The notes under the pieces: model-generated
Seen by the model: the letters and a program-made list of their open reading frames with translations, nothing else
Databases searched by the model: none
Told to the model about the DNA's origin: nothing
Program-made: the position numbers and the translations under genes
Shown: piece by piece, positions 6,557 to 49,798 of the stretch
Layout of the letters: each line of letters starts with the position of its first letter
How positions within the stretch are numbered: the first letter of the stretch is position 1
NCBI RefSeq assembly: GCF_000169195.2
Contig: NC_016023.1
Coordinates: forward strand, 2,418,001 to 2,482,000
Direction: 5' to 3'
DNA length: 64,000 nucleotides
Source of the DNA: Heyndrickxia coagulans 36D1
GTDB lineage: Bacteria > Bacillota > Bacilli > Bacillales > Bacillaceae_C

Positions 6557-7492
6557 CGGAACGGGGTGAGGGACATGAAGGACAAAACAGGGACCGGTAA
6601 CTAGAGAAATGTTCTTCACGGGGCTTATGAAAGACAAAACGAGGGGCCGAGGTGAAAGAAATGTCCTTCATAGGGTTCATGAAAGACAAAACGGGGAGTC
6701 GGGGCGAAAGAAATGTCCTTCATAGGGTTCATGAAAGACAAAACGGGGAGTCGGGACGAAGAAAATGTCCTTCACTGGGCCTATGAAAGACAAAACGAGG
6801 CGCCTGGATGAAGAAAATGTCCTTCATCGAGCTTATGAAGGACAAAACGAGGCTCTGGAACGAAGAAAATGTCCTTCATAGGGTTCATGAAAGACAAAAC
6901 GGGGAGTCGGGACGAAAGAAATGTCCTTCATTGGATCTATGAAAGACAAAACACGGGCTGAGAAACAAGGAAATGTCCTTCAACAAGGTCATGAAGGACA
7001 AAACAAGGATCGATAACCAGAGAAGTGTCCTTCATCAAGCTTATGAAAGACAAAATGAGGCACCAGGGCGAAAGAAATGTCCTTCATTGGATCTATGAAA
7101 GACAAAACACGGGCTGAGAAACAAGGAAATGTCCTTCATAAGGTTCATGAAAGACAAAAAGAGGCGCCGGCACGAAGGAAATGTCCTTCATAGGGTTCAT
7201 GAAAGACAAAACGGGGAGCCGAGACGAAAGAAATGTCCTTCATTGGATCTATGAAAGACAAAACACGGGCTGAGAAACAAGGAAATGTCCTTCAATAAGG
7301 TTATGAAAGACAAAACAGGGACCGATAACCAGAGAAGTGTCCTTCATCAAGCTTATGAAAGACAAAACGAGGCGCCGGGATGAAAGAGATATTCTTCATT
7401 AGCCCCGTGTAAGACAAAACAGGTACCCGGAAACCAAAAAACATCCTTCATCATCGAGCCCATAAAAGACAAAACGGGGGCCGGACCAATAA
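6557..7492. repeat. Hairpin array 1: 18 units at exactly 52-bp period
   Basis: Units start at 6557 (right half only), 6609, 6661 and then every 52 bases to 7441 without a single insertion or deletion. Each unit holds arms TGTCCTTCAT and ATGAAAGACA around a 7-base variable loop (AGGGTTC, TGGATCT, CAAGCTT and others), then AAAAC and a variable purine-rich spacer. Three units with loop TGGATCT (6921, 7077, 7233) are 156 bases apart, so three-unit blocks were duplicated. The period is not a multiple of three, so no reading frame runs through. The array fills the gap between the eno terminator and the secG promoter. Confidence 0.95.
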
Positions 7493-7528
7493 GATACTGT
7501 TCATTTTCGGACAATTATTCCAATGTAG

Positions 7529-7557
7529 TTGAACCCTGCCCCCCAATATGGTACACT
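7529..7557 (+). promoter_or_regulatory. Candidate sigma-A promoter of secG
   Basis: TTGAAC, 17 bases, TACACT, located 39 bases before the secG start and just after the hairpin array. The -10 is weak. Confidence 0.45.
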
Positions 7558-7595
7558 CAAGATTAGGTATTGCCCGTCTCAGGAGGTGTGCAGTT

Positions 7596-7829
7596 GTGCA
7601 TACATTGTTATTAACATTACTAATCATCGATTCAATTCTGTTGATTGCAGTCATACTGCTTCAGCCCGGGAAAAGCACGGGATTGTCCGGCGCCATTTCC
7701 GGCGGCGCTGAACAGCTTTTCGGGAAACAAAAAGTGCGCGGAATTGACCTGATTTTACACAGGATTACGATTGTGCTCGCTGTTTTATTTTTCCTGCTGG
7801 CCATCGGACTTGCATATATAAACCTATAA
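7596..7829 (+). CDS. secG: Preprotein translocase subunit SecG
   Basis: A 77-residue inner-membrane protein with two transmembrane helices (residues about 3-22 and 54-76) separated by the conserved loop [18 protein letters not shown]. It assists SecYE in protein export. The GTG at 7596 is chosen because AGGAGGTG lies 8 bases upstream and the length matches SecG proteins; an ATG further upstream would precede the ribosome-binding site. As in B. subtilis, est, rnr and smpB follow. Confidence 0.93.
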
Positions 7830-8023
7830 GGGTATGCAAATCAGGCAACTTATAAAGAAGCCTTATCCGCACATGCCTGTAAACTTTATGACTTCCATCC
7901 CGGTCCCAAAATCCAGGCCGGGTATTTTTATGCGGATTGCTGGCATTTCCGAAACGACTTTGTTACAAATAAAATGAACAAAGGCCCCAAAGAAAAACAG
8001 CAGGAAAGAGGCGTTTTTTACGG

Positions 8024-8773
8024 ATGATGAGAATTGTACCACCAAAACCGTTTTTATTTGAAGCCGGCAAAAGGGCTGTACTGCTTTTGCACGGATTTAC
8101 CGGAAGCAGCGCCGACGTCAGGATGCTCGGGCGCTTCCTTGAAAAAAAAGGATACACTTGCCATGCGCCGCAATACAAAGGGCACGGGGTACCGCCTGAA
8201 AACCTTTTGCATACGGGTCCAAGCGACTGGTGGCAAGATGTTATGAATGGCTACCAGTTATTAAAAGAAAAAGGGTATCATGAAATTGCAGTAGCCGGAT
8301 TGTCATTGGGCGGGGTATTTTCCTTAAAATTGGGTTACACTGTACCTGTAAAGGGAATTATCACCATGTGCGCGCCCATGAACATAAAAAGCGAGCAAAC
8401 GATGTATGAAGGCGTGGTTGCGTATGCCCGCAAATACAAACAGTTCGAAGGGAAAAGCGAAGCGCAAATCGAACAGGAAATGCGGGAATTCAAAAAGACG
8501 CCGATGCATACGCTGCAATCGCTGCAAGAGCTTATTCAGGATGTGCGCAACCATGTCGATCACATTTATGCGCCCGTTTTTGTCGTACAAGCGCGCCATG
8601 ACGAAATGATCCGCCCGGAAAGCGCCAATATTATTTATTCAGAAGTGGAAACAGACCATAAGCAACTCAAATGGTATGAGAACTCCGGCCATGTTATTAC
8701 ACTCGACGACGAAAAAGATCAACTTCACGAAGATGTGTACACGTTTCTGGAGTCACTTGACTGGTCGGTTTAA
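8024..8773 (+). CDS. est: Carboxylesterase (Est30/YvaK family)
   Basis: The 249-residue alpha/beta hydrolase cleaves short- and medium-chain esters. The predicted catalytic triad is S94 (GLSLGG), D193 (ARHDEM) and H223 (SGHVITLD), the same numbering as Geobacillus Est30, which supports the start at 8024. LLHGFTG near residue 21 forms the oxyanion region. It lies 194 bases after secG and 27 before rnr. The natural substrate is unknown. Confidence 0.92.
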
Positions 8774-8800
8774 AATTTTCCCGAAAAAGGAGGGAAATAA

Positions 8801-11089
8801 ATGGAACAAGACCAACTACGGCAAGATGTTGAAAAAATTTTATCTTATATGAAAGAAGAGACGTACAAGCCGCTGACGGTTCAGGAACTGGAAAAAGCGT
8901 TCGGTATTGACGATTCTTCCGAGTTTAAAGCATTTGTGAAAGTGCTCGTTTATATGGAGGAAAAAGGCCTCATTGTCCGCACGCGAAGCAACCGTTACGG
9001 CCTGCCGGAAAAAATGAATCTCGTACGGGGAAAACTGATTGGCCATCCAAAAGGTTTTGCTTTTGTCGCCCCCGATGAGCCTGGGATGGACGATATTTTT
9101 ATCCCGCCGCATGAAACTAACCATGCGTTAAATGGAGACACCGTTATTGTCCGTGTGTCCACCAAAAGCTCAGGCCAGCGCCAGGAAGGAACCGTTGTGC
9201 GTATTCTTGAGCGGGGCCAGACAGAACTTGTCGGCACATACGTCGAAAGCAAACATTTCGGATTTGTCGTACCCGATGACAAACGGTTCGGCAGCGATAT
9301 TTTTATACCGAAAACAGCAAACGGCGGTGCTGTCGAAGGCCATAAAGTGATTGTCCATATTACCGCCTACCCGGAAGGCACGAAAAATGCGGAAGGCGAA
9401 ATCATCAAAATTCTTGGCCATAAAAATGATCCCGGTGTTGATATTTTGTCGATTATCCATCAGTATGGGCTGCCCCAAGCCTTTCCGGAAGAAGTGCTCG
9501 AACAGGCAAACCGGGTGCCGGAAGAAATTGATGAGAGTGAAATTGGCAGCCGTCGCGATTTGCGCGGGGAAATGATTGTAACGATTGATGGGGCTGATGC
9601 AAAAGATCTCGACGATGCTGTTACCGTGAAAAAACTGGCAAACGGTCATTATAAGCTCGGCGTCCATATTGCAGATGTCAGCCATTATGTAACGGAAGGA
9701 TCGCCGATTGACCGTGAAGCATTTGAACGCGGGACGAGCGTGTACCTTGTTGACCGCGTCATTCCGATGATCCCGCACCGTTTGTCAAACGGCATCTGTT
9801 CCCTGAATCCACAAGTCAACCGGTTTACGCTGTCGTGCGAAATGGAAATTGATGAAACAGGCCGCGTTGTTAATCATGAAATTTTTGAAAGCATCATCAA
9901 AACGACCGCTCGTATGACGTATGCGGACGTTAATAAAATCCTTGTCGACCGCGACGAAGCGCTTAGAAAACACTATGAGCCGCTCGTTCCAATGTTTGAA
10001 CAAATGGCCGAACTCGCGGAGATTTTGCGCAAAAAAAGGATGGAGCGCGGCGCTATTGATTTTGATTTTAAAGAAGCAAAAGTCATTGTCGATGAAAAGG
10101 GCAAACCAACGGATGTTGTGTTGCGTGAGCGGTCGGTTGCAGAAAAGCTGATCGAGGAATTTATGCTTGCTGCCAACGAAACGGTTGCCGAACATTTTTA
10201 CTGGCTGGACGTGCCGTTTATTTACCGGATCCACGAAGAGCCGAAAGCGGAGAAACTGCAGCGGTTCTTTGAATTTATTACCAATTTTGGTCTGATCGTA
10301 CGCGGTACAGCCAATTCAGTGCATCCGCGTGCGTTGCAGGAAATCATTGATACGGTTTCCGGACGGCCTGAGGAAATGGTCGTGTCGACGGTCATGCTGC
10401 GGTCGATGCAGCAGGCGAAGTACGATCCGGAATGCATTGGCCACTTCGGCTTATCAACGAAATTTTACACACATTTCACCTCACCGATCCGCCGTTATCC
10501 GGACCTGATTGTCCACCGGCTGATCCGCACGTATTTGATCAGCGGAAAATTGGATGAAAAGACGAAAGAAAAATGGAAAGCATTACTGCCGGAAATTGCG
10601 GACCATGCCTCGAAAATGGAACGCCGAGCAGTAGAAGCTGAACGGGATACGGATGAGCTGAAAAAAGCCGAATTTATGGAAGACAAAATCGGGGAAGAAT
10701 TCGACGGGATTATCAGCTCAGTTACGAATTTCGGCATGTTTGTCGAACTGCCGAACACGATTGAAGGGCTTGTCCATGTCAGCTATATGACAGATGACTA
10801 TTACCATTACAATGAGCGGCAATATGCCATGATCGGCGAACGGACAGGAAATGTATTCCGCATTGGTGATGAGATCCGCGTCCGCGTGCTCAATGTGAAC
10901 AAAGACGAACACAATATTGATTTTGAAATTGTCGGCATGCAAAACAACCGCCGAGAAAAAACAGAAGAACGCCCGAAAAAGATCGTCAAAGTGCGCGGCA
11001 CCCATTCTACTAGGCCGCAAAAATCGCACCATGCCGACGAAGACTGGGCGACGAGGCCGCCGAAAAAGAAAAAAGCAAATCGAAGGTAA
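8801..11089 (+). CDS. rnr: Ribonuclease R
   Basis: The 762-residue 3'-5' exoribonuclease of the RNase II superfamily degrades structured RNA and, with SmpB-tmRNA, defective messages. The order is an N-terminal winged helix (1-70), two cold-shock domains (75-220), an RNB catalytic domain with the acidic cluster D263, D266, D269, D271, D272, an S1 domain (about 640-720) and a lysine/arginine-rich tail. AAAGGAGGG precedes the ATG. It is 39 bases from smpB, so the two are probably co-transcribed. Confidence 0.97.
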
Positions 11090-11128
11090 CCGGATTTTTT
11101 CGGCTGCCTTCACCGGAGGGGAAATGAA

Positions 11129-11593
11129 ATGCCAAAAGGCGAAGGGAAAGTGCTGGCGCAAAACAAGAAAGCAAGCCATGATTATTTTATCGAAGAAACA
11201 TATGAAGCAGGCATTGTTCTGCAGGGGACAGAAATCAAATCGATCCGGGCTGGCCGTGTAAATTTGCGTGATTCGTTTGCCCGTGTGGAAAATGGGGAAG
11301 TCTTTGTCTACGGGATGCACATCAGCCCGTACGAGCAGGGAAACCGGTACAATCATGACCCGCTCCGCCCGCGGAAAATTTTGCTGCACAAGAAAGAAAT
11401 TGACCGGCTGGCCGGTGTGACAAAAGAGAAAGGTTATGCTTTAATCCCGCTCAAAATCTATATTAAAAATGGGTATGCAAAAGTGCTCGTCGGCCTGGCC
11501 CGCGGGAAAAAGAATTATGACAAGCGTGAATCCCTGAAGAAGAAAGAAGCCGCCCGCGAGATTGAACGTGCCTTTAAAGCACGCCAGCACTAG
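11129..11593 (+). CDS. smpB: SsrA-binding protein SmpB
   Basis: The 154-residue RNA-binding protein carries tmRNA to stalled ribosomes. Conserved stretches visible are [34 protein letters not shown], and the basic C-terminal tail [16 protein letters not shown] that acts in the decoding centre. GGAGGGGAA precedes the ATG. Unlike B. subtilis, where ssrA follows directly, the tmRNA gene is here displaced by about 3.6 kb. Confidence 0.97.
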
Positions 11594-11620
11594 AAAAACA
11601 GGATGACGGCTCTTTGAGCG

Positions 11621-11661
11621 AAAAAAGGGAAAGCGCCGGATTGAAGATTGCGCGCTTCCCT
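11621..11661 (-). terminator. Possible minus-strand terminator after the Rpn-type gene
   Basis: Read on the minus strand, GGGAAGCGC pairs with GCGCTTTCCC around a spacer and a run of T follows. It lies about 130 bases beyond the stop of the minus-strand nuclease gene. Confidence 0.45.
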
Positions 11662-11792
11662 TAAGAAATGGCTTTTTCAATTGAGGGAAAGAGGGGTCTA
11701 ACGGCTTTTGCCTTGCCATTGTTCCAACTGTTGCATTTGGCAAGTCTAAGACAACTTCTTTTCCATCCTCACCAGGGAGCCTGACTTCCATC

Positions 11793-12710
11793 TTATAAAT
11801 TCTCCAGTTGCTGTTTTATTTTTTCCACTTCCGTCTGGCTCAGACCGGTTTTTTCTACAATTAATTGAAGATCCATACCCGAAAGCAACATTTTGATGGC
11901 AATTGGAATCGTTTGCAGCAATTCTTTTCTCTCTTCTTCTCTTCCTTCCTCTTTCCCCTTCTTATACCCGCGGTCAAAGTAAGAATTCGGCAGCTTTAAT
12001 ACTTGCTCTGCTTCGTTCGGATCCAGCATTTTAATGTTTTCCATTACTTCCGCCTCCTCTTTTTCGTTCAATTTTAAATAATAATCAAAGAAACCATATA
12101 GCAGCCTCATTTTTGCAGGGTCAAGCTCCATCCGGGCCAGCATCCGCAGAAACTCCAGTTTGACCTGCACCCGTTCTTTTTCTGTATACCCCATTTTGCT
12201 TAATAATGCTGCGGCAACTGGGTTGTTGCTCCGGATATAATTTCTCCAATTTTGTTTCATCAGATGAATGGATAAATAGTGAAAACGAAGAATTTCAATG
12301 TTGTGGAACGCAAAGATGTATGTATCAGGGGTTTCTGTTTTCTCCTCATAACTAAAAACAGCAATCGGCAATACCGGTTTCCGGTGCCGGAGATTGATCA
12401 TCATGTAATAACGAAACATGCGTTCAGGAAAAGATTTCTCGTAATACGACTGCGGCTCTACATGGATGAGAATCACCGTGTCTTTCCCTTTTACCTTTGT
12501 TTCGGCAAGAATATCAACCCGTTTTTGCTCACCGCCCGGAAAGTCCGTAAACTGTTCCTGCGACAAAAACCGCACCCGGCGGTAGTCGAGATCAGCTGAC
12601 ACATCCGGGAAAAACGCCTCCATAAACTCCTGAAAAAAGTTTTGGATCAGCTCCTTAAAAAAACGATCATGCACGTGATAACCGGCATGTTTTTCCATTA
12701 CCAGTTCCAA
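11793..12710 (-). CDS. Rpn-family PD-(D/E)XK nuclease / transposase-like protein
   Basis: A 305-residue protein of the Rpn (recombination-promoting nuclease, formerly transposase_31/PDDEXK_2) group. The nuclease core shows D66 (RVDILAE), then E85 and Q87 (IHVEPQ), a D-E-Q version of the catalytic motif. The C-terminal third is charged, with GYKKGKEEGREEERKE and a predicted helical end, typical of these proteins. I chose the TTG at 12710 because AAGGAG lies 8 bases before it; a GTG at 12719 is inside that site and an ATG at 12698 is possible. Such genes are multi-copy and mobile, but no terminal repeats are seen. Confidence 0.82.
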   Translation of the reverse strand: MELVMEKHAGYHVHDRFFKELIQNFFQEFMEAFFPDVSADLDYRRVRFLSQEQFTDFPGGEQKRVDILAETKVKGKDTVILIHVEPQSYYEKSFPERMFRYYMMINLRHRKPVLPIAVFSYEEKTETPDTYIFAFHNIEILRFHYLSIHLMKQNWRNYIRSNNPVAAALLSKMGYTEKERVQVKLEFLRMLARMELDPAKMRLLYGFFDYYLKLNEKEEAEVMENIKMLDPNEAEQVLKLPNSYFDRGYKKGKEEGREEERKELLQTIPIAIKMLLSGMDLQLIVEKTGLSQTEVEKIKQQLENL

Positions 12711-12921
12711 TGGCAGCACTCCTTTTCTTATTTTTCAGTTTTATTATAAAGGACAAACGTTCGTTTTTCAATACCGGCTTATCTTTTTTTATAAACAAAA
12801 CCGACTTTCACATTGTTTGCCTCCCTGCTTTCAAAACTTCAGACTACCCTGCAGAATGAGCTTTTTTTACCGTTACCAGAATCAAGAAAGTACCACTGCT
12901 TGCAAGTCTTTTAATTGAACT

Positions 12922-13449
12922 TTACTTTTTTCGACGAACGAAAAATTTTTTCGATTCCATAACCCATAAAGCAAAAATAAGCCCAAAAACGAATGCGTTC
13001 ATAACCGGAATATCAAGAAAGCGCAGCATGCGGAATTTTTCGTAAAAGAAAAAATGATGCCAATAAAAGCCGAAATTCATTCCTACAACCAGTCCAAATA
13101 GAATCCCTGTGAGGCTGGCCTTTTTCTTTGGAGGTGAAATCCCTTTCTGTTCCAAATGCCAATTGATTTCTTTTGCCCGGTTAAAAGCTTGCCAAAGACA
13201 AAAACAGAGTACGGATGGATAAAACATGCCCCATTCATAATTAATCACATGATGCCCATTTTCAAAGTTCTCTTGGAATGCATAAATAATGGCCAAATTC
13301 AAACGGGACTGATGGTTAATGGTCAATTCCAAAGCCATAAAAAGAAAACCGAGCAAATAGTCACCGTTATAAAATTGACCAAATCCAGGCAATGCAAAAG
13401 ACCACAAGAGTGCCGCAACCGGGGACTTATAATTTGTTGGCTTTTCCAA
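12922..13449 (-). CDS. Predicted membrane protein, paralogue 1 of a tandem pair
   Basis: A 175-residue protein with at least four hydrophobic segments. The N-terminus YKSPVAALLWSFALPGFGQF, then YNGDYLLGF, resembles TM2-type membrane proteins, and PKKKASLTGILFG recurs in its neighbour. The function is unknown. The start is TTG, with AAAGGAAG 8 bases upstream. It is clearly homologous to the next upstream gene (YKSP.aALLWS, PGFGQ.YNGDY, LCFCLWQAFN, MNFGFYWH), so the pair arose by duplication. Confidence 0.75.
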   Translation of the reverse strand: MEKPTNYKSPVAALLWSFALPGFGQFYNGDYLLGFLFMALELTINHQSRLNLAIIYAFQENFENGHHVINYEWGMFYPSVLCFCLWQAFNRAKEINWHLEQKGISPPKKKASLTGILFGLVVGMNFGFYWHHFFFYEKFRMLRFLDIPVMNAFVFGLIFALWVMESKKFFVRRKK

Positions 13450-13517
13450 AAAGCATACTTCCTTTATTTCAATTTCTTTTTTATTTCTTGTTGAGTATGT
13501 ACGAAACGCTAAAGGAT

Positions 13518-14522: not shown

Positions 14523-14873
14523 ATGGATGAAATTTTGAAGCAAATTCTTAGTGAACTAAAGGATTTAAAAAGTGATGTCTCCGGTTTAAAGAACGACGTC
14601 TCCAGCTTAAAAGCAGGCCAGGATCGATTGGAAAGTGATGTCTCCGGCTTAAAAGCAGGCCAGGAACGCATCGAAACCAAAGTTGACAATCTTACGTTAG
14701 AATTACGAAGCAATTTTAAATTTACAAATGATAAACTGGAAGAGCACAAAAAAGTTTTTACTGTTGTTTCAAATGAACTGAAAGGCGTAAAAGGCGATAT
14801 CGAATTTCTAAGTGGAAAAACCGGCAGGCATGATACTAAAATTAATCATATTTTGAATATGCTGAGAGATTAA
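14523..14873 (+). CDS. Coiled-coil protein of unknown function
   Basis: A 116-residue hydrophilic protein that is almost wholly coiled coil. Residues 8-55 contain a repeated motif (SDVSGLK, NDVSSLKAGQDRLE, SDVSGLKAGQERIE), followed by a less repetitive helix and an ending HDTKINHILNMLRD. AAAGGGGGAAAG precedes the ATG. Similar short coiled-coil proteins are common in Bacillaceae without known function. No partner is evident. Confidence 0.7.
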   Translation: MDEILKQILSELKDLKSDVSGLKNDVSSLKAGQDRLESDVSGLKAGQERIETKVDNLTLELRSNFKFTNDKLEEHKKVFTVVSNELKGVKGDIEFLSGKTGRHDTKINHILNMLRD

Positions 14874-15168: not shown

Positions 15169-15218
15169 AGGATATGCAAGACCAGTAATAAGTAAAATCT
15201 GAAGCGCCCTTTTATATC

Positions 15219-33381: not shown

Positions 33382-33825
33382 ATACGCTTCACTCTTAAAC
33401 ACCCCTAATTCACGCTTGGCGACCTTTTTTCATAGCAAATGAAAAGCATTCTTTTTTTGGTACTGATCCACTTGCCAAAGGAAAGGAATGCTTTTTAGCT
33501 ATGGAATGGTAAAAACTGTGGCGCCCCCCAAACCATTCTTTTTATCATTCTCTCGTGATCTCGCGGAAATATTTCAGTCTAAATGGTTTAAATCTCAGTT
33601 GCTGCGGATAAATTTCTTCTCTCAATCCAGGCAATTCTCCGTTTTGGAGTGGTTTTTGCAATTTTTTTGATCGATCCCCTTTCAAATAGGCAAAATGTAA
33701 CCCTGTATAGGTATATAGACTCATTTAGAATGATTGTTCACTATTTTTTTCAAATTCGGGATAAAATTTACGAGATTTATTGATTATAATGGTGTTTGAT
33801 ACATAGAACAAAAGGAGGAGACAGA
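33382..33825. other. Gap between bioB and the lysozyme gene
   Basis: A large hairpin AAAAGCATTC/GAATGCTTTT (33442-33495) with a T-rich interior and T-run after it is a plausible bioB terminator. TATAAT at 33785-33790 is the likely -10 of the lysozyme gene; no good -35 is found. No gene is seen. Confidence 0.5.
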
Positions 33826-35646
33826 TTGCGAAGATTGATTTTTTTGGGGGGTGCGGGTTTTTTATTGCTGTTTGCGCTAAGTTTTGTGAAGCCTGCTTCA
33901 GCCGCCTCGTCTACCATGTATACGTGGACACCGTCGAAGCTTTATAAAACGGCGTCCGGCGCGGCTTACTCCAGAAATGTGAACAGCGGGACAGCGGTAA
34001 CCGTCTACAGCAAGTCAGGCAAGCGCTATAAGGTGAAAGCAGGTGGGAAAACAGGTTACATTTATGCTGATAACCTGACAAGGAGCAAAGTGAAAAAAGA
34101 GGACTATTTTGGTTCGAAAATTTATAAGCAGGCGGCAGGCGGCCCGTATGTTGCTTCCGTACCGGCGGGGAAGATGATGTATATCAAAATGGAAGCAACG
34201 AAAAACGGCATGTATCTGGCCCACGTGATCGGAACCGGGTACAGCGGCTATGTTGACAAAACCCATTTTATTAAACCGGTTGTAAAATATACGTGGATGC
34301 CGTCTAAATTATACACATCCGCAACCGGAAATTCGTATAACAAGACGATTAAAGATGGGCAAAAGGTGTCGGTTTTTAATGGGTCGCACGGTCGTTACCA
34401 AGTGAAAGCAGGCAATAGCTCCGGATATATTTATGCGAACAACTTAACCGGCTTGCTCGCGAAAAAAACGGTCTATGCTTCTTCCAAACTGTATACATCT
34501 GCATCCCATACAAAATATACGGCTGTTATTAGACCGAATCAGCAGGTGTATGTGAAAGAAAGCACCCAAAATATGTCCCATATCTGCGTCGTTGGGACAA
34601 CCCAAAGTGGCTGGATTTATACGAGCCACTTCACAAAACCTGCACCGGCAGCGGGTGGGAAAACGACGGGAACGGCAACCGGCAGCACGTCCGGATCTAC
34701 AGGGTCTGCCGCAGCAACAAGTGGCACGACCACAACGGGCAACACTGGATCAGGTTCTGCATCCGGAACGACTACAACGGGAAACACCGGATCGGGTTCT
34801 ACGTCCGGAACGACCACAACGGGCAACACTGGATCAGGTTCTGCATCCGGGACAGCTGCAACAGGCAACACCGGATCAGGTTCTGCATCCGGAACGACCG
34901 CAACGGGCAACACTGGATCAGGTTCTGCATCCGGAACGACCGCAACGGGCAACACCGGATCAGGTTCTGCATCCGGAACGACCACAACGGGCAGTACCGG
35001 ATCAGCCACTGCATCCGCCACGACGACAAAGGGACTGGATGTCAGCCATTATCAAACTCTGACACAAGACAGTTTTAACCTTATGAAGAGCCAGGGCTAC
35101 AATTTTGTCATTCTGAAAGCAACAGAAGGAAGCGGATATACGGATTCGAAGTTTTATACCTATTATAAGTATGCCAGAAACGCCGGCTTGTCGGTCCATG
35201 CTTATCATATGATCGGCAATTCCACCACCACTTCCGCACAGCATATTGCAGAAGCCAAGCATTTTTATCAAGTGCTGGCCCAAGCAAAGGCGAAAACCGG
35301 CTATGCGTTTACGGGCTACGCTTTCGAAGATATAGAACCTACCGGGACGAATAGCATTACAACAACTTGGTGGGCAAATGCGGCCCCGGCTTGTGCTGGC
35401 TATTTCTTAAATGAAATGCAGACGCTCGGGCAGGCGAAAGTGGGCATTTATGCCGGCTACTTTAATTGGAAAAGCTATCTTGAGGGCCATACAGATTCTT
35501 GGCCTAGCAATACCAAAATCTGGCTGGCACGATATAACATCACGCTCGGTACGAATGCAGACGTTTGGCAGTACACCGAAACCGGAACGATCGATGGCAT
35601 CACCGGCCATTTTGACCTTGATATCAGCTATGATCCTGATTTTTAA
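33826..35646 (+). CDS. Secreted GH25 lysozyme with SH3-type repeats and a Gly/Ser/Thr repeat linker
   Basis: The 606-residue protein has a signal peptide (MRRLIFLGG, cleavage near PASA-A), four SH3-like repeats (residues about 38-265, each with S-KLY and a GYIY or equivalent ending), a low-complexity linker, and a C-terminal GH25 muramidase (from GLDVSHYQ at 403). The catalytic acidic pair is probably D502 and E504 (FEDIEP). Its role would be peptidoglycan cleavage at the cell surface, with the SH3 repeats binding the wall. The TTG at 33826 has AAAGGAGGA upstream. Confidence 0.9.
   Translation: MRRLIFLGGAGFLLLFALSFVKPASAASSTMYTWTPSKLYKTASGAAYSRNVNSGTAVTVYSKSGKRYKVKAGGKTGYIYADNLTRSKVKKEDYFGSKIYKQAAGGPYVASVPAGKMMYIKMEATKNGMYLAHVIGTGYSGYVDKTHFIKPVVKYTWMPSKLYTSATGNSYNKTIKDGQKVSVFNGSHGRYQVKAGNSSGYIYANNLTGLLAKKTVYASSKLYTSASHTKYTAVIRPNQQVYVKESTQNMSHICVVGTTQSGWIYTSHFTKPAPAAGGKTTGTATGSTSGSTGSAAATSGTTTTGNTGSGSASGTTTTGNTGSGSTSGTTTTGNTGSGSASGTAATGNTGSGSASGTTATGNTGSGSASGTTATGNTGSGSASGTTTTGSTGSATASATTTKGLDVSHYQTLTQDSFNLMKSQGYNFVILKATEGSGYTDSKFYTYYKYARNAGLSVHAYHMIGNSTTTSAQHIAEAKHFYQVLAQAKAKTGYAFTGYAFEDIEPTGTNSITTTWWANAAPACAGYFLNEMQTLGQAKVGIYAGYFNWKSYLEGHTDSWPSNTKIWLARYNITLGTNADVWQYTETGTIDGITGHFDLDISYDPDF
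34723..35016 (+). repeat. Seven in-frame 42-bp tandem repeats in the lysozyme linker
   Basis: Each repeat encodes the 14-residue unit GTTTTGNTGSGSAS or a close variant. The copies are nearly identical, so copy number may vary between strains by slippage or recombination. The unit resembles flexible O-glycosylatable linkers of surface proteins. Confidence 0.92.
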
Positions 35647-41331: not shown

Positions 41332-41334
41332 GGG

Positions 41335-42526: not shown

Positions 42527-43810
42527 ATGGCCAACAAGAAAAAAGACAAAGTGTTGATATTAACAGGCGCTTTTGGGGAAGGGCATTTGCAGGCCGCCCG
42601 GGCAATTGAACAGGCGATGAAAATTCGTTCCCCAAAAGCAGACCCGGTTGTCGTCGATTTCATGGAATGGGTCCATCCCACCTTATTCCCGGTCAGCCAC
42701 TATGTTTATATGAAAGGTATTGAAAAGTTCCCGAATCTTTACGGGTATTTGTACCGTAAAACGTATGGAAGGAATGCCCTGTCAAAAACATTGACCGGCT
42801 TATTTTCAACGGGGATGAGAAAGACGCTGCGGATGCTCGAAACGATACGCCCATCCGTTATTGTCAGCACCTATCCTTTTGCGTCTTCTATGATTTCAAA
42901 ATTAAAGGAATACGGGCTTACGGATATTCCGCTCGTTACCGTCATTACCGACCATACGCACCACAGTTCATGGCTGCACCCGTACACAGATCACTATGTC
43001 GTTGGTTCGCATATGTTGCGCCGGCAGTTGATCAGGCTCGGCATTCCCGGCCGAAAAATTTCCTGTACAGGGATCCCGATTAAACCGAGTTTCCTGAAAC
43101 CGGTGAACAAGCAGGCTTTGTACAAAAAATACGGCCTCGATCCGGCGTTGCCGGCCGTGCTTGTCATGGGCGGCGGGGAAGGCCTGTTCGGGGACGGGCT
43201 GTTCACGGCTGAAAAACTGGACGAGGTACCTTTCCGCATGCAGCTGTTGATCGTGTGCGGGCATAATGAAAAACTACGCGCCCGCCTGATGGATGATCTG
43301 AAAGGGACGAAGCACAAGGTTTTCGTGCTCGGCTATATTGATTATGTGCGTGATTTAATGGCTGTCTCGGACGTGATGATTACGAAACCGGGCGGCGTGA
43401 CAACAGCGGAAGCATTGGCCATGGAACTGCCGATGATTTTATACAAAGCGCTGCCGGGCCAGGAAGAAGATAACGCAGCCTTTTTAACACAAGCGGGCGC
43501 AGCAGTTGAGGCAGCAGATGAAGGCACGTTAATCCGGTGTTTAGCCCGCCTGAATGAAAACAGGGCACAGCTTGCGAAGATGAAAAGAAACACGCTATCG
43601 ATTCAAAACAGAGAGGCCGCTTTTCGGGTGCTTTCCGTTATTGACCAGGCGAAATATGCACGGCTCATTCATGCGTCTGATCCGGAAATGCCGGATACCG
43701 CGCACGGAAAGTATGCAAGGATGCGAAAAAAGGCTTTGCTTGTGCATCACCCGCATGAATCTTTGGATGAAAGGAGCGGCACGGTTTGGAAGTCATCATC
43801 TGGGTATTGA
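42527..43810 (+). CDS. Diacylglycerol glucosyltransferase-like protein, second copy (GT28)
   Basis: The 427-residue GT-B enzyme begins KVLILTGAFGEGHLQAARAI (MGDG-synthase domain) and has VITDHTHHSSWLHP, VMGGGEGLFGDG and MITKPGGVTTAEALAM in the donor-sugar domain, then an extra basic C-terminal tail (about 50 residues). The ATG at 42527 is preceded by GGGGGGAAAAGAG; an earlier in-frame start adds 28 foreign residues. It overlaps the deacetylase gene by 25 bases and heads a three-gene unit. Confidence 0.88.
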   Translation: MANKKKDKVLILTGAFGEGHLQAARAIEQAMKIRSPKADPVVVDFMEWVHPTLFPVSHYVYMKGIEKFPNLYGYLYRKTYGRNALSKTLTGLFSTGMRKTLRMLETIRPSVIVSTYPFASSMISKLKEYGLTDIPLVTVITDHTHHSSWLHPYTDHYVVGSHMLRRQLIRLGIPGRKISCTGIPIKPSFLKPVNKQALYKKYGLDPALPAVLVMGGGEGLFGDGLFTAEKLDEVPFRMQLLIVCGHNEKLRARLMDDLKGTKHKVFVLGYIDYVRDLMAVSDVMITKPGGVTTAEALAMELPMILYKALPGQEEDNAAFLTQAGAAVEAADEGTLIRCLARLNENRAQLAKMKRNTLSIQNREAAFRVLSVIDQAKYARLIHASDPEMPDTAHGKYARMRKKALLVHHPHESLDERSGTVWKSSSGY

Positions 43811-44529
43811 TTTTATTCATTCTCATATATGCTATTATTCCATATGTTTTAGCGGCCAAACTCGGTTTTTGGGTATGTTGGAAAGGAAAAAAAGATGCGG
43901 AGATTGCGCTCACCTTTGATGACGGGCCGGACCCGGTCTATACGCCGGTACTGCTTGATCTTTTAAAGCGGGAAAGAATTAAGGCCACTTTCTTTCTCGT
44001 CGGGGAAAGGGCGGCCCGGTATCCGGAACTCGTTTTGCGCATGTCGCGTGAAGGGCATTGTATCGGCCTTCATAATTATAAGCACCAGTGCAACTGGCTG
44101 ATCAGCCCTTGGAAAAATGCGCGCACGCTTGAGCAGTCGGCACGGATTATTGAAAACATCACCGGCGAGAGACCGGTTTTTTACCGCCCGCCGTGGGGAA
44201 TGATGCATCTGCTGGACTTTTTTCTGCACAAGCAGTTCCGCATGGTGCACTGGTCGAAAATGTTCCGCGATTGGAAGAGAAAAGGCGGTTCGAAAAAGGT
44301 TTCAAACGGCCTGATCACCCGGGTGGAAAGCGGCGATGTGATTTTGCTGCATGATTGCGGCGTCACGCCGGGCGCAGATGAGGATGCCCCGCAGTATACA
44401 ATTGAAGGTTTGCGGGTTGCGATTCCGGCATTAAAAGCGCGCGGCTTCCGGTTCGTGCGGATGGACGAGATGTTTGACAAACATTTTTCTATCAAAACCA
44501 GCCATAGAAGAAAGGAAATAGAGCCATGA
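43786..44529 (+). CDS. Polysaccharide deacetylase (CE4), membrane-anchored
   Basis: A 247-residue protein. An N-terminal membrane helix (3-24) is followed by a NodB domain: D45/D46 (TFDDGPDP), H96 and H100 (GLHNYKH, metal ligands), RPPWG and the late LLHD motif. It would remove N-acetyl groups from a wall or capsule polymer. The start is TTG within the end of the preceding gene, with AAAGGAGC upstream. It overlaps the next gene by 4 bases. Confidence 0.9.
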   Translation: MEVIIWVLILFILIYAIIPYVLAAKLGFWVCWKGKKDAEIALTFDDGPDPVYTPVLLDLLKRERIKATFFLVGERAARYPELVLRMSREGHCIGLHNYKHQCNWLISPWKNARTLEQSARIIENITGERPVFYRPPWGMMHLLDFFLHKQFRMVHWSKMFRDWKRKGGSKKVSNGLITRVESGDVILLHDCGVTPGADEDAPQYTIEGLRVAIPALKARGFRFVRMDEMFDKHFSIKTSHRRKEIEP

Positions 44530-45104
44530 ATGAGAACGCCAGATTGTTTTTTATGGTCCACAACTTGTCAGGGCATGAAAAATTACTGGATGACATCATG
44601 ATTTTTTTTACACAGGATGCCTTGCCGCTTTTTGCCGCTGTTTTATTGATTGTGTGGTTTTTAGGCAATGATAAAATGAAAAACATGGTGCTTTATGCCG
44701 GCATTGCCGGTGTTGCCGCTTTGCTGGTCAATTATGTGATTACGCTTGTTTATTATGAACCGCGGCCATTTGTCACGTATCATACCAGCATTTTAATTCC
44801 GCATGCGGCCGACGACTCATTTCCGAGCGACCATGCGACAGGCACGTTTGCCATGGCTTTCGCCTTATGGGTGCGGAACCGGAAACTCGGATTAGCGATG
44901 ATGCTCTGTGCCGTTTTGACCGGCATTTCCCGTGTATGGGTCGGGCACCATTATCCGGGGGATATTGCGGCAAGCATTATTGTTGCCTTGTTCACAGTAT
45001 GGACCATCCAAAAAATGAAAGGGTTGTTTGACCCGGCTTTTAGCACGCTGATCGGCTGGTATCATGACATATGGGCGAAAATTACAAAAAAAGGATATAA
45101 ATGA
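44526..45104 (+). CDS. PAP2-family phosphatase, probable undecaprenyl-diphosphate phosphatase (BcrC-like)
   Basis: A 192-residue membrane protein with about five helices and the three PAP2 motifs: YYEPRP, PSDHAT and SRVWVGHHYPGD. BcrC-type enzymes recycle undecaprenyl diphosphate on the outer face and protect against bacitracin. The ATGA overlap with the deacetylase shows co-expression. A role on a different lipid phosphate cannot be excluded. Confidence 0.85.
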   Translation: MNENARLFFMVHNLSGHEKLLDDIMIFFTQDALPLFAAVLLIVWFLGNDKMKNMVLYAGIAGVAALLVNYVITLVYYEPRPFVTYHTSILIPHAADDSFPSDHATGTFAMAFALWVRNRKLGLAMMLCAVLTGISRVWVGHHYPGDIAASIIVALFTVWTIQKMKGLFDPAFSTLIGWYHDIWAKITKKGYK

Positions 45105-45174
45105 CCCGGCAAAATCTATCGAAAAGAGGGCGGGACACCATCTAGCACTGTGCCCTGTCACTCTAAATCAATTT

Positions 45175-45219
45175 AAAAGACGTTGCGGCACGAATCGAAA
45201 TGGTGCCTCAACGTCTTTT
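45175..45219 (+). terminator. Terminator after the PAP2 gene
   Basis: Arms AAAAGACGTTG-C-GGCAC and GTGCC-T-CAACGTCTTTT form a 16-pair stem with one mismatch; TTTTGTATTTT follows. Confidence 0.85.
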
Positions 45220-45237
45220 GTATTTTATATCTATATA

Positions 45238-45460
45238 GGGCTTGCTGAATAAGCGAAATTCCTAGATTTGGAAAGGATGCTGACAGCTTTGGCAACCATT
45301 TAAATGCAAAGGTTTTACAACAAATCCAGGGAAATGCCTGCACGCGAAAGCCGATTCAACGTATGGAGAAGACAAACTCACGCATTTTCGCATATATTTT
45401 GCGATGGAGTTTGCAGACAAATTGGGTACAAATTCAGAACCGGATTCGTTCAGCAAGCCC
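45238..45460. mobile_element. MITE-like element, copy 1
   Basis: The ends are inverted: GGGCTTGCTGAAT at the left and its near complement TTCAGCAAGCCC at the right, each flanked by TATATA (likely target duplication at TA). The interior encodes no full protein. Its right-hand 50 bases are nearly identical to one end of the copy at 49352, and its left end matches the other end of that copy and the remnant at 49800. No transposase for it is in the window. Confidence 0.75.
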
Positions 45461-45569
45461 TATATAAAGTGAACAAAATGTTGCCGCTCTTTTGCCTGCC
45501 GCAAAAAGTCATCATCCGGCAAATTGGTGCGCGGGCTTGATGCAAAAACTGAAGAGCATTTTATAAATG
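45461..45569 (-). repeat. Dispersed non-coding repeat, copy A
   Basis: Homologous to copies at 38413 and 53418. On the minus strand it lies just after the katA stop. The MITE-like element abuts its end, inside the TATATA that the copies share. Confidence 0.75.
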
Positions 45570-45604
45570 TGCATTTAGCGGCACCGCAAACCTTCATCCG
45601 CCAG

Positions 45605-47101
45605 TTATTTCCTCGAAACAGCCGCCTCTACTTCGCTCATCGGAATGCCGAGTGCGCGCGCGACGCCCTCGCCGTATGCCGGATCTGCATAATAACAGTT
45701 CGTAATATGGCGGAGCTGGACTTCTCTTGTCGTTCCCTGCATATTGCGGGCGGTGTTTGCAAACAGTCGTTGCTGTTCTTCCGGCGCCATCAGCCTGAAC
45801 AGTTTGCCGGGCTGTTCATAATAGTTGTCGTCATCTTCACGGAAATTGTGATAGTCAGCCGTACCTAAAATATCGAGTGCCGGTTCTGCGTGCTCCTTGC
45901 TGTCTTCCCATTCGCCGTAACTGTTCGGGCTGTATGAAACGGAACCGCCTTCAGCCGGATTGAAAACCCGCATTGCGCCATCGCGGTGGTACGGATGGAA
46001 GTGTTCCGCTTTTTTCGGATAGTTGACAGGAATTTGCCAGTGGTTGACGCCTAACCGGTAACGCTGCGCATCGCCGTAAGAGAAAAGGCGGCCCTGCAGC
46101 ATTTTATCCGGCGAGAACCCGATGCCCGGCACAATATTGGTCGGGGCGAACGCGGCCTGTTCGACTTCTGCAAAATAGTTTTCCGGGTTGCGGTTCAGTT
46201 CCACGATACCCACTTCAATCAACGGAAAATCTTTATGGTACCATACCTTTGTTAAATCGAACGGATTATACGGAAGGTTTTTCGCCTCTTCTTCCGTCAT
46301 CACCTGGATGTACATCGTCCAGCGCGGATAGTCGCCGCTTTCAATCGCTTCGTACAAATCGCGCTGATGGCTGTCGCGGTCGCGGCCGATGATTTCCTGT
46401 GCTTCTTCATCCGTCAGGTTTTTGATGCCCTGTTGTGTTTTAAAGTGGAATTTGACCCAGACGCGTTCATTGTTTGCGTTGAACATGCTGTACGTATGGC
46501 TGCCGAACATATGCATATTCCGGTAGCTTGCCGGAATGCCACGGTCGCTCATCGTAATCGTTACTTGGTGGAGCGCTTCAGGAAGCAGCGTCCAAAAATC
46601 CCAGTTTGCCTGTGCACTGTGCATATTGGTGCGCGGGTTGCGTTTGACGACATGGTTCAAATCCGGGAAACGTTTCGGGTCTCTGAGGAAAAATACAGGC
46701 GTGTTGTTCCCGACAAGGTCCCAATTGCCTTCTTCTGTGTAAAATTTCATGGCCGTTCCGCGGATATCGCGTTCGGCATCCGCCGCGCCGCGTTCGCCGG
46801 CAACGGTTGAGAAACGGATGAACATATCGGTTTTTTTGCCGACTTTTGAGAAAAGTTTTGCCTTCGTATATTTCGTTATATCGTTTGTCACCGTGAATGT
46901 CCCGTAGGCGCCGGAACCTTTTGCATGCATCCGCCGCTCCGGGATCACTTCTCGGTCGAAGTGGGCCAGCTTTTCAATAAACCAGACATCCTCCATCAAT
47001 AACGGCCCTCTTTTGCCGGCGGTTTTTGAATCTGTGTCATTCGGAACCGGGGCACCGAATGCAGTTGTCATTTTTTTGTTGTCTTTTTGATCACTCATCA
47101 T
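45605..47101 (-). CDS. katA: Catalase (monofunctional, haem)
   Basis: The 498-residue clade 3 catalase decomposes hydrogen peroxide. The active-site H59 ([12 protein letters not shown]), [20 protein letters not shown] and the haem-tyrosine region [14 protein letters not shown] are present. AAAGGTGGG precedes the first of two ATG codons. PerR control is usual for vegetative catalase; the promoter region is AT-rich, with only a degenerate PerR-like half-site. Confidence 0.97.
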
Positions 47102-47131
47102 TTTCCCACCTTTTGCTATTTTGATGTCTAT

Positions 47132-47159
47132 ATTATAACTGATTCATTATAAAAATCAA
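47132..47159 (-). promoter_or_regulatory. katA promoter
   Basis: On the minus strand: TTGATT, 16 bases, TATAAT. The spacer lies in the inverted repeat TTATAA-N8-TTATAA (47133-47152), which might be a divergent PerR or Fur-type site; only one half fits the PerR consensus well. Confidence 0.55.
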
Positions 47160-47405
47160 TATTTATTTATAATAAATTTAAAGTAAAGTTTTTTATATCA
47201 AAAGAAAAGGGGTGGAAATAGAAGTGAGATAGAAATTTTCTATTTTCATTTTCGATATTTAATTCTCAATTGCGGAATAGGAAAGGGAGAAAAAGCGCTT
47301 TTGGACGCTTTTTCCGGCCGGGATGATGCCGCCTGCTTTTAATAGTGGCTTTGCCGGGCATTTTTTGGTATAAATAAGTTAAACGACTGGATAAGGATGA
47401 ATCAT

Positions 47406-48437
47406 ATGCTGAATGAGAAGCCAAACCTGGAGAACGATGCATCTTTTTATATTCCGGAAAGCGGTTTATTATACATACAAAAAACACAGGCTGTCATTGA
47501 ATATATGACGCAGAAATCCTGTGTATACGAAGTCCTTTCCGAGCATTTAATGGTTCCGTTTGAAGAAAAGGATACTTTATTTGATATCATAAAAGATATG
47601 CCCGAAACGGTTGATCTGTTCACCAGTGTCCATCCGTCCGGGTCCGGATTTTCGGTGCTCTCCCTGCCGCTTTCTCAATTAAAAGAGCGCATCCGCTATG
47701 AGATGCTTGTAAAAGTGATTATTTCCGGCAGCCTGACGAGTTATTTTCAGCCGATCATCCGCATTCAGGACAACCAAATATACGGCTATGAATCTTTGCT
47801 GCGCACCCGTTTGCCGAACCGGAACATTCCCCCGGGCCTATTATTTGATGTCGCCCATAAAACCGGACTGCATTCGTTATTGGATTTGCGCGCCAGGGAA
47901 GCGGCACTGAAAGCCCGTGCTGAGAAACTTCCCCGCGGCGTGAAGAGCTTTATCAATTTTTTGCCCGCTTCGATTTATGATTACAAGTTTTGCTTGCGGC
48001 ATACGTTTACTTTGATCGAACAGTACGATATTTCCCCGGAGGACCTTGTCTTTGAGGTTGTGGAAACCGAGAAGATCAATGATGTCCACTTTTTAAAAAA
48101 GATACTCGGGATCTACCGTGATCTTGGCGTCGGCGTGGCGCTTGATGATCTCGGTTCAGGGTACGCAACGCTTGAAACTTTGAAAATTTTAAATCCGAAC
48201 TATGTGAAAATCGACCGTTTTTTCATTTCCCATTGCGACGAGAATAAGGTCAAACAGCGCTTTTTGCAGGAAGTCATGGAAATTGCGGGAGAAACCGGTA
48301 TTTATGTGCTAGCGGAAGGAATTGAACGCGAAGAAGAACTGCTCTATTGCAAATCGATCGGCATGCATTTGGCGCAAGGGTACTATATTGGAAAACCCGC
48401 TCCCGAACCCGCTGCGATCATTCTTGGGGGAAATTAG
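47406..48437 (+). CDS. EAL-domain protein (cyclic-di-GMP phosphodiesterase or sensor)
   Basis: A 343-residue protein with an N-terminal part of about 100 residues that I cannot assign and a complete EAL domain (about 103-340). Key residues appear intact: E129 (YESLLR in place of EALLR), N in INFLP, E in EVVET, DD in ALDDLGSG, K in VKIDR, E in AEGIE and Q in AQGYY. Hydrolysis of cyclic-di-GMP is therefore likely. I chose the ATG at 47406, since AAGG ends 9 bases before it; the ATG at 47397 directly abuts that site. No GGDEF domain is present. Confidence 0.88.
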   Translation: MLNEKPNLENDASFYIPESGLLYIQKTQAVIEYMTQKSCVYEVLSEHLMVPFEEKDTLFDIIKDMPETVDLFTSVHPSGSGFSVLSLPLSQLKERIRYEMLVKVIISGSLTSYFQPIIRIQDNQIYGYESLLRTRLPNRNIPPGLLFDVAHKTGLHSLLDLRAREAALKARAEKLPRGVKSFINFLPASIYDYKFCLRHTFTLIEQYDISPEDLVFEVVETEKINDVHFLKKILGIYRDLGVGVALDDLGSGYATLETLKILNPNYVKIDRFFISHCDENKVKQRFLQEVMEIAGETGIYVLAEGIEREEELLYCKSIGMHLAQGYYIGKPAPEPAAIILGGN

Positions 48438-48611
48438 GGGCTTTCGGGTTTTGCAATGGCCGTTTTTGTAGCGTTTGCTAAAAAATGAATCTTCATTGCG
48501 TTTACGAGGCTGGACCTGAAAGATAGGTCGGCTTTTTTAATTTCTTCAGCAAGGATGCGAATCAGCGGACCTGGCAAAAAAAGAGAAACTAGCCGTACAG
48601 TGAGGTCAAAT
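48438..48611. other. Gap between the EAL gene and array 2
   Basis: No gene or clear terminator is seen. Confidence 0.4.
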
Positions 48612-49350
48612 TGTTCTTTTGCGTGATGTAAAAGGACCAAAAGGAGTCGCGTTTGGGTCCGAAATGTCTTTTTGAAGCTGTCAAAAGGACAAAACACGTT
48701 GCATCCGGGTCTGAAATGTCCTTTTGAAGCTGTCAAAAGGACAAACGGAGCTGAATCCTGGCTCGAAATGTCCTTTTGAAGCCGTCAAAAGGACAAATTG
48801 ACCTCCACCCGGGCCCAAAATGTCTTTTTGAAGCTGTCAAAAGGACAAAACACGTTGCATCCAGACCCGAAATGTCCTTTTGAAACTGCCAAAAGGACAA
48901 ACGGAGCTTCAGCCGGGCTCGAAATGTCCTTTTGAAGCTATCAAAAGGACAAAAGGAGCAGCATCCGGGTCTGAAATGTCTTTTTGAAGCTATCAAAAGG
49001 ACAAAAGGAGCAGCATCCGGGCTCGAAATGTCCCTTTGTAGCCGTCAAAAGGACAAAACACGTTGCATCCGAGCCCGAAATGTCCTTTTGAAGCCGTCAA
49101 AAGGACAAATTGACCTCCACCCGGGCCCAAAATGTCTTTTTGAAGCTGTCAAAAAGACAAAAGGAGCTGAATCCGGGTCTGAAATGTCCTTTTGAAGCTG
49201 TCAAAGGGACAAAAGGAGCAGCATCTGGGCTCGAAATGTCCCTTTGTAGCCGTCAAAAGGACAAAACACGTTGCATCCGAGCCCGAAATGTCCTTTTGAA
49301 TCTGCCAAAAGGACAAAAGGAGCTGCATCCTGGCTCGAAATGTCCTACTT
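48612..49350. repeat. Hairpin array 2: 15 units at exactly 52-bp period
   Basis: Units start at 48612 (degenerate), 48664, 48716 and every 52 bases to 49340, where the last is cut by the MITE-like element. The arms are TGTCCTTTTGA and TCAAAAGGACA around a 5-base loop (AGCTG and variants), with a 25-base spacer that varies as a small set of types (CACGTTGCATCC, GGAGCAGCATCC, TTGACCTCCACC). The flanks GAAATGTCCTT and GGACAAA recall array 1, but the inner arms and spacers differ. No indels occur despite many substitutions. The array lies between two convergent genes. Confidence 0.95.
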
Positions 49351-49351
49351 G

Positions 49352-49495
49352 GGGCTTGGTGAACGAATCCGATTCTGAATTTGTACCCAATTTGTCAGCA
49401 AGCTCTTTTTCAAAATATAGAAGAATCCATCTTTAACCCTTGCACATTGTATTAAGTTTTTCCAAATCTAGGAAGTTTGGTGATTCAGCAAGCCC
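49352..49495. mobile_element. MITE-like element, copy 2
   Basis: The ends are GGGCTTGGTGAACGAATCC and TGATTCAGCAAGCCC. They match the ends of the element at 45238 (inverted orientation), including GATTCTGAATTTGTACCC and CCAAATCTAGGAA. The interior is shorter and different. It interrupts the last unit of array 2, and array 3 begins three bases after its end. Confidence 0.75.
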
Positions 49496-49498
49496 TAT

Positions 49499-49798
49499 GT
49501 TAAGGAAGCGTGGAAAAACGAAGTCCTTCCTCAACATAGACCCCGTCTACGTTAAGGAAGCATGGAAAAACGAAGCCCTTCCTTAACATAGACCCCGTCT
49601 ACGTTAAGGAAGCAAGCAAAAACGAGGGTCTTCCTTCACATAGGGCACGTCTACGTTAAGGAAGCGTGGAAAAACGAAGGCCTTCCTTCACATAGAGCGC
49701 GTCTACGTTAAGGAAGCGTGGAAAAACGAAGGCCTTCCTTCACATAGAGCGCGTCTACGTTAAAGAAGCACGAAAAAAAACCGGCCTCCAGCATTCTT
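49499..49798. repeat. Hairpin array 3: six units at exactly 52-bp period
   Basis: Units start at 49499, 49551, 49603, 49655, 49707 and 49759 (the last degenerate). Each unit has arms GTTAAGGAAG and CTTCCTTAAC (or one-base variants) around CGTGGAAAAACGAAG, then a second small hairpin TAGAC/GTCTA in most units. The sequence is unrelated to arrays 1 and 2 apart from the period and the hairpin design. Confidence 0.92.

What the first reader, a model, noticed from the sequence alone, without database searches (positions are those of the whole stretch)
6557..49798. Three hairpin arrays, one with unrelated sequence, share an exact 52-bp period
Arrays at 6557-7492, 48612-49350 and 49499-49798 repeat every 52 bases with no indel over 18, 15 and 6 units, although many substitutions separate the units. 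Array 3 shares no sequence with arrays 1 and 2; only the period and the one-main-hairpin-per-unit design are common. 52 bp is close to five helical turns, so every palindrome would face the same side of the DNA. Fixed spacing with drifting sequence suggests selection on geometry: an ordered protein array, a nucleoid or terminus-type element, or a multi-hairpin RNA. The alternative is that unit-length copying alone keeps the period. I know of no described family with this form.
Basis: partly seen in the sequence, partly recalled or inferred. Interest (0 to 1): 0.85.

Follow-up and report, generated by a model that had tools for sequence, protein, structure and literature searches.

The report
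Known 52-bp palindromic tandem repeats
These are members of an already published class of bacterial tandem repeats that keep a 52-base spacing while their sequence changes; the new detail here is that units often carry a palindrome whose two arms change together, but the function is still unknown.

Summary
In detail: three non-coding arrays with a 52-bp period. The claim that no such family is described is wrong. Subirana and Messeguer (PMC8161180, main text read) report 52-nt and 20-21-nt repeats of constant length and variable sequence in Bacillus. Their B. coagulans families match arrays 2 and 3 (48/50 and 46/49 positions) and, less closely, array 1 (35/51).

Added here:
- In a sister genome (inferred DSM 1) arrays 2 and 3 are absent from an otherwise collinear site.
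- In the own stretches examined, 232 of 246 steps are exactly 52.
- Length changes are at least ten times rarer, relative to substitutions, than in ordinary intergenic DNA.
- Outer palindrome arms differ between genera but stay complementary.
- Dyad and spacer lengths differ between arrays (27+25, 35+17) but sum to 52.
- A/T content has an excess at five cycles per unit, about 10.4 bp.
- No strand bias; convergent gene pairs favoured.

Best reading: double-stranded DNA with dyads held five helical turns apart, probably for a protein array. Function unproven.

The parts
6575..7461 (+). Array 1: 17 in-register 52-bp units (M type, dyad TGTCCTTCAT-N7-ATGAARGACA, 27 bp, plus 25-bp A-rich spacer); a degenerate 18th unit, shifted by 3 bases, follows to about 7500
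   Evidence: partial match (35 of 51) to published family 8_52_18
48628..49355 (+). Array 2: 14 in-register 52-bp units (K type, dyad TGTCCTTTTGA-N5-TCAAAAGGACA, 27 bp, plus 25-bp spacer)
   Evidence: 48 of 50 positions match published family 2_52_35
49495..49806 (+). Array 3: 5 clear 52-bp units plus one degenerate unit (J type, dyad CTTCCTTAACATAGA-N5-TCTACGTTAAGGAAG, 35 bp, plus 17-bp spacer)
   Evidence: 46 of 49 positions match published family 1_52_139
48539..49929 (.). Stretch carrying arrays 2 and 3 that is replaced by 33 bp in the sister genome G032 (inferred DSM 1)
5164..6459 (+). Enolase gene upstream of array 1
47397..48437 (+). EAL-domain gene upstream of array 2
49970..53167 (-). 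AcrB/AcrD/AcrF-family transporter gene, convergent with the EAL gene across arrays 2 and 3

Best explanation
The arrays are members of the published 52-nt tandem-repeat class of Bacillales. Shown: the window units, and most but not all arrays examined elsewhere, are an inverted repeat (dyad) plus a spacer, and the unit-to-unit distance of 52 bp is what stays constant, not the dyad or spacer length nor, between genera, the sequence. Inferred: the feature under constraint is double-stranded DNA in which dyads recur every five helical turns (5 x 10.4 bp), so that all dyads face the same side and can carry an ordered array of a DNA-bending or bridging protein, placed preferentially between convergent genes. 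Arrays are gained, lost and resized; shown are presence/absence at one site and unit-length gaps between two species at another. Inferred: that new arrays copy existing families of the same genome, the protein itself, the bridging role, and any effect on the nucleoid or on transcription.
For: (1) Own stretches and window: 232 of 246 tracked steps are exactly 52; the 14 others are 50 (1), 51 (5), 53 (7) and 54 (1) (a 54-period array inside an open frame was left out). (2) In 397 genomes of the order, pairs of TTCAT-N7-ATGAA were sought with any gap of 20-50; 56 genomes of 28 genera match. In the 30 fetched loci 90 of 97 single steps are exactly 52. Of 398 genomes drawn from the phylum only this genome and one single 62-nt match were hit. 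(3) Outer arms differ between genera but remain complementary: summed pairing at outer positions 2-5 is 3.26 against at most 2.78 in 2000 partner shuffles over 27 loci. (4) 27+25, 35+17, 25+27 and 19+33 all total 52. (5) Length changes against substitutions: 14 to at least 969 in own arrays, 42 to 184 in gaps between genes of four relatives (Fisher p 5e-21; a looser first version gave 70 to 489). (6) A|T power at five cycles per unit is 0.079 against 0.040 (sd 0.007, maximum 0.061 of 300) in non-array DNA of the same loci, 27 arrays. (7) No strand preference: G.U 126 against A.C 135 mismatches in 223 distinct units; tandem gene contexts 12 same and 8 opposite (p 0.50). (8) Convergent gene pairs 17 of 42 against 115 of 815.
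Against: No protein was identified and none was tested. The stem pair next to the inner arm pairs no better than chance within arrays (0.448 against 0.460 expected) or between genera (0.70 against 0.65). Some arrays show no clear hairpin (L124, L138). Power at seven cycles per unit is also raised, so the helical signal is not exclusive. Distances between dyads across array boundaries did not clearly follow whole turns (105, 73, 98, 147 and 241 bp). Among 60 arrays of other genomes no period near three or six turns was seen, which a pure phasing rule does not explain. Copying by whole units and homogenisation could also hold the period. The paper states that the repeats are transcribed in B. 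coagulans. Convergent enrichment was not seen in one of the three samples (2 of 10, p 0.64). Array counts vary widely between relatives, so an essential role is unlikely.
Confidence: 0.4

Rival explanations
1. Selfish or neutral satellite: arrays grow and shrink by unequal exchange and copy themselves to other intergenic sites; the period is inherited and kept because only whole-unit changes keep the units recombining. There is no cellular function.
For: Sporadic distribution (56 of 397 genomes) and widely different counts within one genus label (g17: 0 to 131 pairs). Arrays 2 and 3 absent in the sister genome. Array 1 reduced to under two units there. At one shared locus the in-array alignment gaps, apart from one of 1517 bp that holds a transposase insertion, are 51, 52, 1 and 52 bp. 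Several loci in one genome share families.
Against: It does not explain why arrays of unrelated sequence in many genera share 51-53 bp and almost never another length in that range, nor the outer-arm covariation between genera.
Confidence: 0.33
2. RNA function: the arrays are transcribed into multi-hairpin RNAs that act as sponges, small RNAs or 3'-end structures.
For: PMC8161180 states that the 52-nt repeats are transcribed in B. coagulans and proposes this. Two-unit pieces of arrays 2 and 3 fold better than shuffles on both strands, z -6.3 to -7.6. Divergent (promoter-side) gaps are few: 1 of 20 own, 1 of 10 and 3 of 22 elsewhere.
Against: The two-unit piece of array 1 folds well only on the strand opposite to its neighbouring genes: z 0.27 on +, -4.43 on -. 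G.U and A.C mismatches are balanced, 126 to 135. Orientation to neighbouring genes is mixed, 12 to 8. RNA gives no obvious reason for a constant 52. No Rfam family reaches its threshold over the arrays.
Confidence: 0.15
3. REP/BIME-like elements spread by a Y1 (RAYT) transposase, with gyrase or supercoiling roles.
For: Intergenic palindromes enriched between convergent genes.
Against: The only Y1 match in the genome is a 40-position fragment with an internal stop. REP dimers and clusters are described with variable distances (PMC3733652, passages read). Head tags (GTAG, CGTC) were not tested here.
Confidence: 0.05

Closest known systems
52-nt constant-length tandem repeats of Bacillus (Subirana and Messeguer 2021, PMC8161180; their 2020 J Bacteriol paper is cited there but was not held)
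   Same: Period 52 with 51 or 53 occasionally, variable sequence, several families per genome, species specific, non-coding, strain variable. B. coagulans families 2_52_35 and 1_52_139 match arrays 2 and 3, and 8_52_18 partly matches array 1. Their Table 4 lists a 3.55-Mb coagulans genome with 57 arrays of 51-53 nt.
   Different: The main text holds no word beginning palindrom, hairpin or convergent, although it notes that short signals and their reverse often occur in one repeat. The arm covariation, indel depletion, 10.4-bp signal, gene-context bias and sister-genome empty site are additions here.
20-21-nt (and 40-41-nt) tandem repeats of Bacillus (same paper)
   Same: Constant length, variable sequence, non-coding; period about two or four helical turns. 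Seen here in other genomes.
   Different: Listed units are direct repeats; the dyad-plus-spacer plan was not examined for them. Not found in the window by TRF except one weak 21-bp row of 2.3 copies at 14564-14612.
REP/BIME elements
   Same: Intergenic palindromes.
   Different: No intact RAYT in this genome; fixed head-to-tail spacing here.
CRISPR arrays
   Same: Regular spacing, partly palindromic repeats.
   Different: Spacers are related between units. A search for cas genes was not made here; PMC8161180 says there is no evidence of a Cas-like partner.

Membership tests
52-nt constant-length tandem repeats (PMC8161180) | Repeat length 52 (51-53) with variable sequence | tested here: met
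52-nt constant-length tandem repeats (PMC8161180) | Several families per genome, non-coding | tested here: met
   52 is not a multiple of three
52-nt constant-length tandem repeats (PMC8161180) | Sequence match to published B. coagulans families | tested here: met
   48 of 50 (array 2) and 46 of 49 (array 3); array 1 only 35 of 51
52-nt constant-length tandem repeats (PMC8161180) | Transcribed in B. coagulans | not testable with these tools
   stated in the paper; no RNA data here
REP/BIME | Associated Y1/RAYT transposase in the genome | tested here: not met
   only a 40-position fragment with a stop
REP/BIME | GTAG or CGTC head tag | not tested
   no test was run
CRISPR | Unique spacers between constant repeats | tested here: not met
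   spacers recur with substitutions
CRISPR | cas genes nearby | not tested
   no cas search was run
Known structured RNA family | Rfam match over the arrays | tested here: not met
   only tmRNA in the window at gathering threshold

The most novel reading that the evidence does not exclude
A structure-defined chromosomal scaffold: dyads whose arm sequence is free to drift as long as both arms drift together, held exactly five helical turns apart, with A/T content phased to the helix, so that a protein reads geometry and symmetry more than sequence. The 20-21 and 40-42 bp classes would be two-turn and four-turn versions of the same principle.
Probability: 0.25. Interest if true: 0.8.

Novelty: already known. 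Interest (0 to 1): 0.42.

Why it matters
The class is published but unexplained. The evidence added here narrows the question to a testable one: the conserved quantity is unit-to-unit (dyad-to-dyad) distance, not sequence, dyad length or strand. If a protein requires that spacing, it would be a new kind of chromosomal scaffold in Bacillales; if not, the arrays are an unusually length-stable bacterial satellite.

Tried and rejected
Rejected: coding repeats (52 is not a multiple of three; arrays with a period that is a multiple of three inside an open frame of at least 120 codons were set aside). Rejected: Rfam RNA. Not found on plasmids or phages: no match at E 1e-5 for array 1 in plasmids or arrays 2 and 3 in phages; the crossed combinations were not searched. 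Rejected: an extant RAYT origin. Inconclusive: helical phase across array boundaries. Inconclusive: strand orientation, 3 same and 5 opposite in own tandem contexts (read by eye) and 9 same and 3 opposite.

Counts that need care. The first indel calibration let some unlisted reading frames count as intergenic and counted steps against TRF consensus length (35 of 246 non-modal). One search repeats both with stricter gaps and a fixed 52 reference: 42 indels to 184 substitutions outside arrays, 14 of 246 steps not 52 inside. The substitution count in arrays is a lower bound; compensating indels inside a unit are missed. In one search some species were sampled twice (for example L032/L128, L095/L125) and 20 loci come from outside the order. 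Of the 30 loci fetched, three (L258, L277, L280) held no array, so 56 genomes is an upper figure. In some searches some near-symmetric arrays were matched on both strands. One search dropped L128 (same species as L032) and L203 (coding); several of its 27 arrays share the TTCAT core and are not independent. Global alignments are unreliable for four of the five pairs. By flank distances one pair differs by 1673 bp, insertion included; two differ by 7.8 and 6.9 units; three pairs failed to anchor. One J-type array (988650-989020) is not directly beside an M or K array.

Literature: the ten searches were made; the class paper was listed only in the last. Main text read in full: PMC8161180 (supplements not available). 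Passages only: PMC4892684, PMC1590033, PMC3733652, PMC2267715. The 2020 J Bacteriol paper was not held, so it was not seen.

Recalled, not from a call: B-DNA pitch 10.4-10.5 bp, BIME/gyrase links, secG downstream of eno, and the identity of NC_016023.1 with this genome (the paper gives 3.55 Mb, coagulans).
Full report
WHAT IS THERE. The window is part of a one-contig 3,552,226-bp genome. A carboxylesterase-like protein at 8024-8773 is 99% identical to one of Heyndrickxia coagulans DSM 1, and the three long DNA matches to that record are 94.6-96.1% identical. The three arrays are confirmed with period 52. Array 1 lies downstream of enolase; arrays 2 and 3 lie between an EAL-domain gene and a convergent AcrB-family gene. 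Rfam finds nothing but tmRNA in the window.

GENOME-WIDE. A loose unit pattern has 76 forward and 102 reverse matches against 2 for the control (100 rows listed). In the 19 fetched own stretches TRF shows many further arrays at 52, of the same M, K and J types, on either strand and sometimes back to back. J arrays (like array 3) were seen beside M or K arrays at 485 kb, 1,299-1,300 kb, 2,594 kb and in the window; one at 988.7-989.0 kb is about 900 bp from the nearest. Of 246 non-coding steps tracked, 232 are exactly 52.

BEYOND THE GENOME. In loci from other genomes (80, 60 near smpB, 40 at fixed positions, 20 outside the order), non-coding arrays of at least 80 bp have periods 20-21 (12), 40-42 (7) and 51-53 (27). 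There are none at 22-39 or 54-70 and two at 43-50, in a total of 60 arrays with periods from 16 to 269 (a few species sampled twice). With a pattern that allows any gap of 20-50 between two TTCAT-N7-ATGAA cores, 56 of 397 genomes in the order match (28 of 135 genera), and 90 of 97 single steps in the 30 fetched loci are exactly 52. Of 398 genomes drawn from the phylum only this genome and one single 62-nt match were found. Three of the 30 fetched loci held no array.

ANATOMY. The compact hairpin is arm-loop-arm: 10-7-10 for M, 11-5-11 for K, 15-5-15 for J. Dyad and spacer are 27+25, 27+25 and 35+17; other species have, for example, 25+27 and 19+33, summing to 52. Not every array has a clear hairpin: L124 and L138 do not, and its frame-based analysis failed for L148. 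Within own arrays, loop-side pairs 10-12 pair above a within-array shuffle (0.863 against 0.755, sd 0.010), but the middle pair does not (0.448 against 0.460). Among 223 distinct units, 85 have M arms on both sides, 68 have K arms on both sides and none mixes them; 70 could not be classed on at least one side. Between genera, outer arms change but remain complementary in 27 loci; some of these loci are related, so the count is not of independent events.

CONSTRAINT. Own arrays show at least 969 substitution events against 14 length-changing steps. Gaps between genes in four relatives show 184 substitutions and 42 indels (p 5e-21). A looser first calibration gave 489 and 70. Homogenisation between units could contribute, and compensating indels inside a unit would be missed. 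A|T power at five cycles per unit over 27 arrays is 0.079 against 0.040 in non-array DNA and 0.039 in shuffled units; the seven-cycle component is also raised, at 0.063.

STRAND AND CONTEXT. G.U and A.C mismatches are balanced (126, 135). The A-rich strand agrees with the gene direction in 12 of 20 tandem contexts (p 0.50). Convergent contexts are 10 of 20 in this genome against 11 of 63 other gaps (p 0.007), and 2 of 10 against 104 of 752 in the other stretches (p 0.64). In the loci they are 7 of 22 (p 0.028), and pooled 17 of 42 against 115 of 815 (p 5e-5; the pool uses own and contexts and leaves out the 10). Gene calls are simple longest-ORF calls.

TURNOVER. In genome G032, inferred to be DSM 1 because its smpB lies on a contig numbered 33 as in the DSM 1 record, the 1391 bp holding arrays 2 and 3 are replaced by 33 bp between matching flanks. 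In the DSM 1 record array 1 is reduced to under two units; that assembly is fragmented, so collapse cannot be excluded, though flanks are continuous. A shared array at 979 kb carries in this genome an insertion with transposase genes (HTH_Tnp_1; HTH_21 plus rve). Apart from the 1517-bp gap that holds it, the in-array gaps are 51, 52, 1 and 52 bp. Two other shared arrays differ by 7.8 and 6.9 units by flank distance, so not every difference is a whole number of units.

KNOWN OR NEW. PMC8161180 (main text) describes exactly this class: 'constant size (either 52 or 20-21 nt), but a variable sequence', 1886 arrays of 51-53 and 781 of 20-21 in 176 genomes, species-specific families, partial conservation between B. 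coagulans strains, and hypotheses of nucleoid protein binding or small RNA. Window arrays 2 and 3 match its families 2_52_35 and 1_52_139; array 1 resembles 8_52_18. The finding is therefore already known. The dyad covariation, the distance rule, the indel depletion, the 10.4-bp signal and the gene context are refinements that I did not see in that text; its supplements and the 2020 paper were not seen.

MECHANISM. Taken together, a double-stranded-DNA element with dyads five turns apart, read by a protein array, fits best (0.4). A length-stable satellite without function (0.33) and an RNA role (0.15) remain open. No protein, binding or phenotype has been shown.

Noticed in passing
L158:11327-11608, L223:8642-8786, L248:5263-5665, L138:10731-11030 and others: Direct-repeat arrays of 20-21 bp, or 40-42 bp made of two such halves; the 20-21-nt class, and 40-41 nt as related to it, is in PMC8161180.
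   Followed up: partly
L175:4921-6140 (own genome 979920-981139): A two-gene transposase insertion (HTH_Tnp_1; HTH_21 plus rve) sits inside a 52-bp array; the sister genome has the array without it.
   Followed up: partly
window 34726-35033: A 42-bp tandem repeat (7.3 copies, score 441) inside the 616-aa open frame 33796-35646, probably a protein repeat.
   Followed up: no
L148:8946-10081: A 52-bp array that also gives TRF periods of 20, 124 and 176, as if a 20-bp extra step occurred in places; this would fit a two-turn sub-step.
   Followed up: no
own genome 987338-987609 (L175:12339-12610): A 62-bp tandem repeat (4.3 copies) near the 52-bp arrays, about six helical turns; whether it is coding was not checked in detail.
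   Followed up: no
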